The notes under the pieces are model-generated. The model was not told the origin of the DNA. It did not search any database and saw only the letters and a program-made list of their open reading frames with translations. The position numbers and the translations under genes are program-made. From contig NC_079487.1 of NCBI RefSeq assembly GCF_020520425.1, positions 61,992,398-62,056,397 on the forward strand: DNA of 64,000 nucleotides, in the 5' to 3' direction. This DNA comes from Spinacia oleracea (lineage: Eukaryota; Streptophyta; Magnoliopsida; Caryophyllales; Amaranthaceae). Positions 126 through 54,600 of the stretch are shown here, one piece after another (positions within the stretch are counted from its first letter, which is position 1; every line of letters begins with the position of its first letter).

Positions 126-2149
126 TAGTAACCGTCTACATTCCTTTGATTTCAATATGCTATGTGTTTAAGCGATTGACATTTATCCTTATTTAATTAG
201 TCTACATAAGGTATTACTATTCTCTAGTTACCTTTATCTTTAGTATGTAATGGATTAAATTTACGAGCATTGGGAATAGGTAAAAAAAGCAATAATTACA
301 GCCGACATTGATTAGATGGATGTTGTATGACATTTATTTTATTTTCAATAAATTTTACTTTTAATGAGAAGTTAAAAAGATTAAATATATATTTTTTTTC
401 CAAAATTAAAATTAACTTGAAAGTCCATACTTTGTAGGTATACATTTATCATAGATAAACTCTACAAACCATGGCACGCAAGAAACAACATATTCAAAAT
501 AAAAGTGATTGAAGTCTCTCTCCTAAAACTTTTCCTCCAAGTTTCTCTCTGGTGTATGGTTGTAATATCCCGAGTATTTTATATAGTAAAGTTTGGTATA
601 ATTTTTATTTATTTAAAAAAAAAATGTTCTTTAATTAGCGTTTGAGACTAAAGAAACAAAGTTTTTATCTAAATTAAGTTTCGAGGCGAAACTTCTTTTA
701 AGTAGGGTAGATTGTAAACCCTATATTTTATTAACTTTAAGTTTCGGGACGAAATTTCTTTTAAGGGGGATAGATTGTAATACCCCAATATTTTATGATT
801 TCATAAAATATAATTTATAGCAAAATAAAGTTATAATTCTTACTAATCGTTTTTCCATTTTATTTAATCTCTTTTAATATTTTTGGAAAATTTAAAACGC
901 TATTTTAAATTTAGTAGGACTCTTATAATAAGCACTATATATATATATTCCGTTAACCCTAATTAGCTCCCCGGCCGTCACACATTCATTCCCTAACTAA
1001 TCTTTTCGCTTTAATGGCTGTTTATGCTCAAACTCAAGATTTCGTTTCCAATATTGTTCATGCGCACTTATTTATCATGCATACATGAAACCAATTTTGA
1101 TATTTAGTTTCAATCCCTTTTTTTTAAACTAATGATAATGATTAGACCTCACTTGATCAGCCAAATTATGATCTTTTATCTACTGAAAATAATAACCGCA
1201 ATCAGCCTTTTACCTGATTCTTCAATCTGTTCGGATACTTGAATATAAACAATCCTCGGAAGGTAATCACGCACACTTAGTCTCTTTAAATTATTCGTAA
1301 TTAAGTATTGATCATTATATATAATCATGTATAGGCCTTTGGAGGTGTTTGTTATATATAGTATAAATTTTTATGTCTAATTATAAGTGAATAATGTGAT
1401 AACGTGAATTAGATAAATGCTCAACTCATGGAAAATATTGTTGATTTAGATTTCTTATTTTATTAGTCACTGTTACTTTGTATGTGTGTAGATAACTAAG
1501 GGTCTAGTTTATTTGCGGATTGATATTGGAAATTTGGATTGGATCAATCTATATATTCTAGAGTTTTAGATCGTTATAGCTAGAGTTTCTTGGCTTTATT
1601 AATTAGTAGTTAGTAATCACGCGCACTTAGTCTATTCGAGTTATTTGTACATGTTAATTGTAATCGCATACACTCAATCTGTTCGTATTACTCGTATATA
1701 TTTGGAGACGTTTGAGTATATAATTGATTTTAAGTATATAGTAGTGGGCTTGTATACTGTGCGATGTATGCTATAGTATGTTGCGATATTATGTTTGTTG
1801 TTGGGTTTTATAGATAACAGTACAAAGTTGCGTAAATGCTTGGTATTATGATGTGGCTGTTGTATTGATTATTAGGGTTTTTATTTTAAGGAAATTAACA
1901 TTGTACTCTAGTGAGTCTTATCCTTGAAGTTCTAGGGTTACTCGTATTATTTTGAGAAGATAAATAATTATGGTTTAGAGTAGTATTTCCCTAAGTAGTT
2001 AAGGTTGAAAAGTTATATGAACCGGTCAAATAGCACATTGTGCTTTATTATTTGGTCGGAGCCATGAGCACGACCCTAGGCTTAATCTACTCCTTTGAGT
2101 TAAAAACACTCATCGGGGGGTGTGCACACTTAAAGACTAAGACCTATTT

Positions 2150-2390
2150 GGTGGTTACATCCAATAGTCCATTACTATTGGGTGGTGGACTAGATTCACA
2201 TTTCTCTGGTGGTTACATCCAATAGTCCATTACTATTGGGTGGTGGACTAGATTCACATTTTTCTGGTGGTTACATCCAATAGTTTAATATATACTAATG
2301 GGTGGTGGACGCGATCCACATCTCTCTGGTGGTTACATCCAATAGTTCAATATATACTATTCGGTGGTGGACTCGATCCACATTCCTCTA
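2150..2390. repeat. Four tandem repeats of 58-62 bp
   Basis: Units start at 2150, 2208, 2266 and 2328, each opening with GGTGGTTACATCCAATAGT and including GGGTGGTGGAC. The first two are nearly identical; the last two share TATATACTA. They lie inside the long LTR of R0. Confidence 0.85.
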
Positions 2391-2493
2391 ATGTTGGACT
2401 TATAAGAAATTAACAATAAACCCTTGTTACCTATGGTTATAAGTACTAGTTTTATAAGAATTGATTATCAATTTGTACTAATGTGTTTGTTAA

Positions 2494-2657
2494 ATTATTA
2501 TTATTATTATTATTATTATTATTATTATTATTATTATTATTATTATTATTATTATTATTATTATTATTATTATTATTATTATTATTATTATTATTATTAT
2601 TATTATTATTATTATTATTATTATTATTATTATTATTATTATTATTATTATTATTAT
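2494..2657. repeat. (TTA)n microsatellite, about 54 units
   Basis: An uninterrupted TTA/ATT run of about 164 bases inside R0. It creates spurious open frames of poly-Tyr, poly-Leu and poly-Asn, which are not genes. Such a perfect run suggests recent expansion. Confidence 0.97.
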
Positions 2658-3100
2658 ATGTCTGGTTATTCAATAAGCGTTGATTACTCAGCTTTTGCTG
2701 ACGTGTGTGTTTATTTGTTATGTGTGTTTGCGGCCATGTCTTTTTCTTATGGTGGCCCTGCGACGATCCTTTTGGAATTTGTCCACTATGGTGAGCAGTC
2801 AAGATTGACTAGAGCAGATCGATCGTGAAAGATGCAATTACAAGTTGAAGGAGCTCAATATTATCGTTTAGTCTTGTATGACCGTTTAATACTTTTAGTT
2901 TAAATAGACCACCTAGTAATCGAGTTGTAATAGTTTGAGTTTTGTAAGCCTTAGCACTTGACAATGTGATCAAGTGTGGCGGTGATACCTCCGATTTAGG
3001 TGTAAGCTTCCGCAAATTTTTATAAAGTATATATTATTCTTATTTATTTCTAGTTAGTAAATCGGGGGTGTTACAATGGTAACTACCATACACCGTCGCC

Positions 3101-52369: not shown

Positions 52370-52949
52370 TTGCTATAAGCTCAAATCAAAGTGCCGCAAT
52401 AGTTGTATCAAGAAACGTTTCTATAGACTCACATAAAAATGTTGCAATAGTGTAGCAAGAAACGTTGCTAAAGATTCATGTAAAAGTGTCGCAATAGCTG
52501 TAACAAGAAACTTTGCTACAGACTCGTGTAAAAGTGTTGCAATAGCGGTATCAATAAATGTTGCTATAGACACAAAAATGTTGCAATATTAGATCAATAA
52601 ACCTTGCCATAGAGTGTTGATAGTGTTGCTTTAGATAATAAAAGTGTTAGCTTAAACACTAAAAATGTTGCTTGAAATTCTAACTCATTGTTACTAAAAC
52701 TTGATAAATGTCGCCTTAGATATAATAAAACTGTTGGCAAAGGTTAACAATTGTTGCCTTTGCTAATGATAACTATAGTAGCGGTTTCATAAAGTTGTTG
52801 CCTAAGGCATCATAACTGTTGCCTTAGAGTTATAGCAGCGCCACCTATTGGCAACGCCATATAAACTGTTGCTATAGGTCTATGGAAACATTTATTGGAT
52901 CTTTACCAACACATTTAGGTCGTTACTATAGCCCTATTTTGTAGTAGTG
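52370..52949. repeat. CACTA right subterminal repeats
   Basis: Many short copies of GTTGCTATAG/GTTGCAATAG with AAGAAACGTT and AAAAGTGT(C/T)GCAATAG, in both orientations, up to the terminal inverted repeat. Same motif family as the left end. Confidence 0.75.
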
Positions 52950-53468
52950 GTCGTAAAAAGACATTTGCGACGGTTGTAGGTTGTTAGCCCCGTCGCAAAA
53001 GGCTTTTGCGACGGGACTTTTGACCCGTAGTAATTAGGTTTTTGTTAAACATACAAATTCTTGTAATGGTAAGACATGTTTGAAGGGTTAAATCACAAGA
53101 TTCAACGACTTAAACCGCAATTTTAGTAACCATCGGGTAACGATTTTCGAAATACCACACGGGACGATCGTCAAATATCAAAATACGTACTTTGTAAGAT
53201 GTGCCTATATTTAAAGTAAGACTATGTGAAACAAAATCAATCATTCATGACACAATAATTAAATGCATTCAAATTTATGAAGTTTTGCAAAATTGTACTA
53301 TGTTCTACACTAATAGTATGTTTTATCTAAACGTAGTATGCCCTATGATAATATCTTCTATGACTTAAGTGTTATACTCCTGTCAATAATTTATATTAGT
53401 ATGATTTAGGCTATTTCTTCTATCTCGACGGATCCGTCAAGTGTACATTCAAAGATCAAAATGTGCTT

Positions 53469-54427
53469 GCATTGGGAATAGGTAAAAAAAATTAATAAAT
53501 ACAGCCGACCTTTATTAGATGGATGTTGTATGACATTTATTTTATTTTCGGTAAATTTTACTTTTAATCAGAAGTTAAAAAGATTAAATATATTTTTTTC
53601 CAAAATTAAATTTAACTTGAAGGTCCTTATTTTGCAGGCATACATTTATCATAGATAAATTCTACAAACCATGACACGCAAGCAACAACATATTCAAAAT
53701 AAAAGTGGTTTTTAATTAATAATATTTTAAGATTAATTACTTTTGTATCATGATAAATTATAGAGTCATGTAGAATAACAAAGCAAATCGTACACTACAA
53801 GAAATTGTATGATTAATGACGGGAAATTCCGTCACGCTAATGACCAATAATCTTTGATTAATGATGGGATTCCCGGTAGCGCACCCGTCGTAATAGGGGG
53901 CCGTCGTTAATGAATAATCCCGTCATAAAAGACATTTGCGACGGTTGTAGGTTGCTAGCCCCGTCGCAAAAGGCTTTTGCGATGGGACTTTTGACCCTTA
54001 GTAATTAGGTTTTTGTTAAAGATACAAATTCTTGTAGTGGTAAGACATATTTGAAGGGTTAATCACAAGATTCAACGACTTAAACCGAGATTTTAATAAC
54101 GATCGGGTAACGATTTTTGAAATACCACACGGGGCGATCAAAATACGTACTTTGTACGACGTGCCTATATTTAAAGTAACACTATGTGAAACAAACAAAT
54201 CATTCATGACACAATAATTAAATGCATGCAAATTTATGAAGTTTAGCAAAATTGTTGTATGTTCTACACTAATAGTATGTTTTATCTAAACGTAGTACGC
54301 CCTATTATAATATCTTCTGTAACTTAAGAGCTATACTCTTGTCAATACTTTATATTAGTATGATTTAGGCTATTTCTCCTATCTCGACGGATCTGTCAAG
54401 TGTGCATGCAAAGATCAAAATGTGCTT
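53469..54427. repeat. Second copy (B) of the tandem duplication
   Basis: 959 bases, from GCATTGGGAATAGG to the next copy. It contains the intact CACTA-type MITE but neither the LINE nor the large CACTA element, so it serves as the empty-site reference for copy A. No gene is visible. Confidence 0.85.
53793..54039. mobile_element. CACTA-type MITE, copy 2 (intact)
   Basis: CACTACAAGAAATTG ... ACAAATTCTTGTAGTG, 247 bases, 3-base duplication GTA (53790-53792, 54040-54042). GACGGGA/CCCGTC and GCGACGG motifs give internal dyad symmetry. Orthologous to the interrupted copy at 34884. Confidence 0.87.
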
Positions 54428-54600
54428 GCATTGGGAATAGGTAAAAAAAAATAAAAAATTACAGCGACATTAATTAGATGGATGTTGTATGAAATTTATT
54501 TTATTTTTAGTAAATTTTACTTTGAATGAGAAGTTCAAAAGATTAAATATATTTTTTTCCAAAGATAATTTAATTTGAAGGTCCATATTTTTAAGCTGTA
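54428..54600. repeat. Third, partial copy (C) of the tandem duplication
   Basis: Matches the first about 170 bases of copies A and B (GCATTGGGAATAGG through AAGGTCCATA), then diverges. The following 54601-55070 is AT-rich with no gene seen. Confidence 0.75.

What the first reader, a model, noticed from the sequence alone, without database searches (positions are those of the whole stretch)
267..54600. One copy of a ~960-bp tandem duplication expanded about 55-fold by nested transposons
Seen directly: copy B (53469-54427) is an in-place empty-site control for copy A (267-53468). The order of events can be read: CACTA-type MITE, tandem duplication, then LINE and large CACTA in copy A only, then R0, R1, R2 and the hAT MITE in the LINE, and R3 and the Mutator MITE in the CACTA. 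Nearly every junction has a duplication of the right size for its class (10, 5, 5, 5, 8, 3, 3, 5 and 9 bases). Such a fully resolvable nest with its own internal control is rare.
Basis: seen in the sequence. Interest (0 to 1): 0.75.

Follow-up and report, generated by a model that had tools for sequence, protein, structure and literature searches.

The report
Nested transposons in one tandem-repeat copy
In a plant genome that looks like spinach, one copy of a small duplicated stretch of DNA was blown up about 55-fold by transposons landing inside transposons while its neighbour stayed intact, which is a clean teaching example of an ordinary process rather than a new phenomenon.

Summary
Copy A, taken as its three flanking pieces (983 bp), aligns end to end with copy B (959 bp), 92.9% identical over 956 aligned bases. 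Copy A spans 53,202 bp, 55.5 times copy B. Two primary insertions fill it: an apparently full-length L1-type LINE and a CACTA element. The LINE holds two LTR retrotransposons (R0, R1), a solo LTR (R2) and a hAT-type MITE; the CACTA holds R3 and a Mutator-type MITE. Target-site duplications of class-typical size were found at 9 of 9 sites, 7 exact and 2 (R0, R3) with one mismatch in five. Divergence agrees with nesting: duplication 0.075, R1 0.034, R0 0.031, R3 0.015. LINE decay suggests that it is older than R0 and R1 and near the duplication in age. Corrections: a third, partial copy (54428-54607) follows B; the order of LINE and CACTA, and among the LINE's inserts, is not shown; and eight insertions in one copy are expected, because a growing copy is a growing target (about 0.6 under a length-only model). 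It is a new example of transposon nesting, a long-known structure.

The parts
267..510 (+). copy A of the tandem unit, first piece, up to and including the left LINE target-site duplication (501-510)
   Evidence: BLAST pairs 267-507 with 53469-53707; alignment
511..34791 (+). apparently full-length L1-type LINE with its inserts; net length 4,853 bp, A tail at 34787-34791, target-site duplication AAAAGTGATT at 501-510 and 34792-34801
   Evidence: ORF1 DUF4283 (E 1.3e-20), RVT_1 (3.8e-23), zf-RVT (1.5e-18); duplication; net length
561..3075 (.). R2, a 2,515-bp solo LTR (TG...CA) in the LINE 5' leader, duplication ATGGT; holds a perfect (ATT)54.7 microsatellite at 2494-2657
   Evidence: no ORF of 150 aa or more
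3581..13478 (+). R0, LTR retrotransposon with Ty3/gypsy domain order, LTRs 3581-4274 and 12785-13478, in LINE ORF1; duplication CAAAT/CAAAC
   Evidence: gag, RVT_1, Integrase_H2C2, rve; LTR K2P 0.031; LINE reading resumes across the site after one frame change
13963..30676 (+). R1, LTR retrotransposon with Ty3/gypsy domain order, LTRs 13963-16071 and 28576-30676, in the CCHC knuckle of LINE ORF1; duplication GAAAT
   Evidence: RVT_1, RNase H, rve, and an antisense PMD match below the curated cut-off; LTR K2P 0.034; flanks read PIVCGKCKLIGHGEEKC
34421..34698 (.). hAT-type MITE, 278 bp, termini CAGAGGTGGAG/CTCCGCCACTG (9 of 11 complementary), duplication GGTCCAAC
   Evidence: read by eye, placed, duplication; the TIR scan did not list it
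34802..35024 (+). copy A, second piece; contains the left part of the CACTA-type MITE (from 34884)
35025..52949 (.). large CACTA element with inserts, 29-bp terminal repeats CACTACTACAAAATAGGGCTATAG(C/T)AACG, duplication GTC (35022-35024, 52950-52952); net length 5,399 bp; no ORF of 150 aa or more outside R3
35503..47652 (-). R3, LTR retrotransposon inserted in the CACTA, LTRs 35503-36940 and 46161-47652; gag and a long second ORF (protease region by recalled motif) on the minus strand, no match to reverse transcriptase or integrase pieces of R0 and R1; duplication ATTTG/AATTG
50537..50898 (.). Mutator-type MITE, 362 bp, termini GGAAAAATTGAT/ATCAATTTTTCC, duplication AAACATAAA
52953..53468 (+). 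copy A, third piece; contains the right part of the CACTA-type MITE (to 53068)
53469..54427 (+). copy B, empty-site control, 959 bp
53793..54039 (.). CACTA-type MITE (247 bp) shared by copies A and B, duplication GTA
54428..54607 (+). copy C, a third, partial copy of the unit (first 180 bp), 13-14% different from A and B

Best explanation
A stretch of about 960 bp carrying a CACTA-type MITE was tandemly duplicated (two full copies and one partial one remain). An L1-type LINE then inserted in copy A by target-primed reverse transcription, and a CACTA element by cut and paste into the MITE of the same copy. These two added about 10 kb of target, and later elements landed in that larger target: R2 (reduced to a solo LTR by LTR-LTR recombination), R0, R1 and a hAT-type MITE in the LINE; R3 and a Mutator-type MITE in the CACTA. 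Shown here: the copies, the boundaries, the duplications, the nesting and the divergences. Inferred: the transposition mechanisms (from established knowledge of each class), the class names of the two MITEs (from duplication size and termini), and that insertion chance followed length.
Against: R0 and R3 have one mismatch in a 5-bp duplication. Frame changes in the LINE (5 counted) are fewer than the 8.6 expected at the age of the duplication and more than the 2.8 expected at the age of R1, neither significantly. Clocks are pooled over different kinds of sequence and may differ by methylation. Nesting of LTR elements is reported not to be random in position (PMC6911290, abstract), so a length-only model is a simplification. 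Three LTR insertions within the first 1,029 bp of a 4,853-bp LINE is somewhat clustered (0.0095 for that end, 0.106 for any span of 979 bp); this was tested after seeing it.
Confidence: 0.93

Rival explanations
1. The LINE and/or CACTA were already present as an insertion polymorphism, and the tandem pair arose by unequal exchange between a filled and an empty allele. The present picture would be the same, but the insertions would be as old as, or older than, the duplication.
For: LINE ORF2 decay (7 stops, implied one-lineage divergence 0.051, 95% range 0.02-0.10) fits the age of the duplication (0.0375 per lineage).
Against: A divergence of 7.5% between A and B leaves much time after the duplication, and frame changes (5) are fewer than the 8.6 expected at that age (P of 5 or fewer 0.14). 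Not decisive.
Confidence: 0.12
2. Copy A is a preferred landing site, for example because silent chromatin spread from the first insertions, and copy B is protected.
For: All eight later insertions are in A; three LTR elements lie in the first 1,029 bp of the LINE.
Against: A length-only model gives the same one-sidedness with probability about 0.6, so nothing is left to explain; a single locus.
Confidence: 0.05
3. The nest is an assembly chimera that joins unrelated repeats.
For: Repeats are where assemblies fail; two of nine duplications have a mismatch.
Against: Class-typical duplications at nine of nine sites, no N, and LINE ORF1 reading that resumes across R0 and R1.
Confidence: 0.02

Closest known systems
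Nested transposable elements of plant genomes (maize and later surveys; PMC6911290: 1,491 nested pairs in 12 genomes)
   Same: Younger elements inside older ones, ordered by nesting and LTR divergence; Ty3/gypsy elements prominent.
   Different: Here the outer hosts are a LINE and a CACTA, whereas that survey counted LTR elements in LTR elements; and a tandem copy beside the nest serves as the empty site.
Ogre/Tat and Retand lineages (PMC6337768 for spinach; PMC11963269 for Retand)
   Same: R0 and R1 have the Ty3/gypsy domain order and long regions between integrase and the 3' LTR that hold antisense ORFs; Ogre/Tat is the most abundant gypsy lineage in spinach (PMC6337768, abstract).
   Different: The lineage was not placed by a tree; PF04195, the usual Retand antisense domain (PMC11963269, passages), was not found in the four R0 antisense pieces scanned.
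Non-autonomous LTR retrotransposons that keep gag
   Same: R3 has gag and a second long ORF, and no match to the reverse transcriptase, RNase H or integrase pieces of R0 and R1 at E 1e-3.
   Different: It also carries an antisense ORF region with matches to DUF7745 and the plant mobile domain below their curated cut-offs; R1 has a related region with a plant-mobile-domain match, also below cut-off.

Membership tests
Nested transposon cluster | outer element resumes after inner element, with a target-site duplication | tested here: met
   LINE ORF1 resumes after R0 and R1; duplications at all six inner inserts, two with one mismatch
Nested transposon cluster | inner elements not older than outer ones | tested here: met
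   R0 and R1 (0.031, 0.034) are younger than AB (0.075) and than LINE stops imply, P 0.007 and 0.010; CACTA, R2 and the MITEs have no clock of their own
Plant L1-type LINE | ORF1 with DUF4283 and CCHC knuckle, ORF2 with RT and zf-RVT, A tail, target-site duplication | tested here: met
   the endonuclease region was not scanned and full length was not checked against a relative
CACTA transposon | termini CACTA/TAGTG in inverted repeat and 3-bp duplication | tested here: met
CACTA transposon | own transposase | tested here: inconclusive
   no ORF of 150 aa or more outside R3; 12 ORFs of 60 aa or more overlap 47660-52940, the longest 95 aa, not scanned by profile
Ogre/Tat or Retand lineage (R0, R1) | placement by reverse-transcriptase tree | not tested
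   only domain content and antisense ORFs were examined
Mutator-type MITE | terminal inverted repeats, 9-bp duplication, no coding capacity | tested here: met
   12-bp perfect termini and 9/9 duplication; kinship to a named autonomous element not tested
hAT-type MITE | terminal inverted repeats, 8-bp duplication, no coding capacity | tested here: met
   8/8 duplication, termini 9 of 11 complementary; kinship to a named autonomous element not tested

The most novel reading that the evidence does not exclude
After the first insertion copy A became a chromatin-marked sink that draws transposons while a nearly identical copy next to it stays immune, so that tandem pairs would be natural experiments on insertion preference.
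Probability: 0.05. Interest if true: 0.5.

Novelty: new member of a known kind. Interest (0 to 1): 0.2.

Why it matters
It is a well-resolved example with an internal control, useful for teaching or for testing nest-annotation software: nesting order and independent clocks agree. It also shows that one-sided growth of a tandem pair is what chance gives once the first insertion has enlarged one copy. It does not change a view of how transposons work.

Tried and rejected
Self-comparison at first placed the R0 LTR start at 3568; rejected because bases up to 3580 read on as LINE ORF1 and only resemble the stretch before the right LTR. R0 and R1 polymerase pieces were compared with the window to see whether R3 keeps a reverse transcriptase; no match in R3 at E 1e-3. 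The rest of the unit was sought after copy C and before copy A; only three short matches with E 0.008 to 0.33. A stretch of the hAT-type MITE that resembles tRNA boxes (recalled motif) was checked with ARAGORN; no gene, though its bacterial setting does not judge SINE-like remnants. That copy C is older than the A/B split was considered: 16, 7 and 5 unique differences in C, A and B give p 0.025, but p 0.20 if five adjacent columns count as one event, so it is left open. The request to search the own genome did not complete, so the frequency of such nests and the identity of the 960-bp unit are unknown. Apart from that request no DNA-level relative was sought: by their descriptions the other collections hold viral, bacterial, archaeal, phage, plasmid and metagenome records, and metagenome scans were capped at none.

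Full report
What was checked. Differences are spread evenly over nine consecutive bins. Copy A spans 53,202 bp, which is 55.5 times copy B; 52,219 bp of it belong to the two nests, counting one duplicated target with each.

Origin. The best of 237 protein matches of the second R3 ORF is a Spinacia oleracea protein, 95% identical over 58% of the query, a cluster of 50 member sequences; the other 119 of the 120 listed are 27-44% identical (7,994 candidates scored). The window is therefore most likely from spinach or a close relative. This rests on one protein.

Anatomy. The LINE (511-34791, net 4,853 bp) looks full length: 50 bp of leader before R2, ORF1 with DUF4283, ORF2 with reverse transcriptase and zf-RVT, and an A tail. 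Its duplication is AAAAGTGATT, of which the four As cannot be told from the tail. R2 (561-3075) begins TGTAATA and ends TTACA, has ATGGT on both sides and no ORF of 150 aa or more, so I take it for a solo LTR. R0 (3581-13478) lies in ORF1, R1 (13963-30676) in the CCHC knuckle of ORF1. Flanks joined at the R1 site read PIVCGKCKLIGHGEEKC in one frame; at the R0 site the reading continues after one frame change and contains one stop. A hAT-type MITE (34421-34698), found by eye, lies near the LINE's 3' end. The CACTA (35025-52949, net 5,399 bp) has 29-bp terminal repeats with one mismatch and GTC on both sides, and sits inside an older CACTA-type MITE that copies A and B share (53793-54039 in B). 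The CACTA holds R3 (35503-47652) and a Mutator-type MITE (50537-50898).

Order of events. Copy B has the MITE but neither LINE nor CACTA, so the MITE came first. Nesting puts R0, R1, R2 and the hAT-type MITE after the LINE, and R3 and the Mutator-type MITE after the CACTA. LTR divergence is an independent clock: R1 0.0337 +/- 0.0041, R0 0.0309 +/- 0.0068, R3 0.0148 +/- 0.0032, each below AB (z 4.1, 3.8, 6.1), and R3 below R1 (z 3.6) and R0 (z 2.1). With 1.3e-8 per site per year, the rate used for spinach LTRs in PMC6337768 (passage), these are about 2.9 (duplication), 1.3, 1.2 and 0.6 million years, and twice that at half the rate; the rate is for silent sites and the dates are rough. LINE ORF2 carries 7 premature stops in 3,279 bases over six in-frame segments chosen by eye; 5.2 are expected at the AB age and 2.3 or 2.1 at the age of R1 or R0 (P of 7 or more 0.010 and 0.007). 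Its 5 frame changes lie between the 8.6 expected at the AB age and the 2.8 at the R1 age, and decide nothing. So the LINE is probably older than its inserts and close in age to the duplication. LINE against CACTA, and the order of R0, R1, R2 and the hAT-type MITE, stay open.

Is the one-sidedness special? No. If insertion chance is proportional to length, the first insertion makes one copy the larger target and the rest follow. The crowding of three LTR insertions in the first fifth of the LINE is mild and was tested after seeing it (0.0095 for that end, 0.106 for any such span).

A third, partial copy of the unit follows B (54428-54607, 180 bp, 13-14% different from A and B), although the finding's end coordinate of 54600 may include it. 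R3 seems non-autonomous: gag and a second long ORF, but no match to the polymerase pieces of R1 or R0 at E 1e-3, while those of R0 and R1 match each other at 30-47%. I call the second ORF a protease region from a recalled motif; Pfam gave it no family, and one distant spinach relative is named as an aspartic peptidase (P0115).

Comparison with what is known. Nesting is common in plants; PMC6911290 (abstract, Background and one Results section read) analysed 1,491 nested pairs in 12 genomes and says that extensive nesting was found in maize more than two decades earlier. PMC6337768 (abstract and passages) reports Ogre/Tat as the most abundant gypsy lineage in spinach and a mean LTR-element age of 1.42 million years, close to R0 and R1 at the same rate. 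PMC11963269 (passages) describes antisense ORFs and non-autonomous members in Retand. Four literature searches were read as listings (14 of 14, 15 of 55, 12 of 51 and 6 of 6 papers). No listed title names this locus, but none of the searches was aimed at it, and I make no claim that it is absent from print.

Verdict. A true and unusually tidy example of a known process; interest 0.2.

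Noticed in passing
35503-47652: R3 keeps gag and a second long ORF, shows no match to reverse transcriptase or integrase pieces of R0 and R1, and bears an antisense ORF region with DUF7745 and PMD matches below cut-off; its best database relative is a spinach cluster of 50 member sequences, so it may belong to a multi-copy non-autonomous family.
   Followed up: partly
24760-25939 and 38950-40052: R1 and R3 carry related antisense ORF regions (about 34% identical by tblastn); Pfam gives PMD for R1 and DUF7745 and PMD for R3, each below the curated cut-off.
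   Followed up: partly
2494-2657: Perfect (ATT)54.7 microsatellite inside the R2 solo LTR.
   Followed up: no
34421-34698: The hAT-type MITE holds a stretch resembling tRNA A and B boxes (recalled motif); ARAGORN finds no tRNA gene.
   Followed up: partly
58333-60297: Two minus-strand ORFs, one with a SWIM zinc finger, that look like remains of a MULE-type transposase (family name recalled).
   Followed up: no
37440-37845: 118-bp tandem repeat, 3.5 copies, in R3 between the antisense ORF region and an LTR.
   Followed up: no
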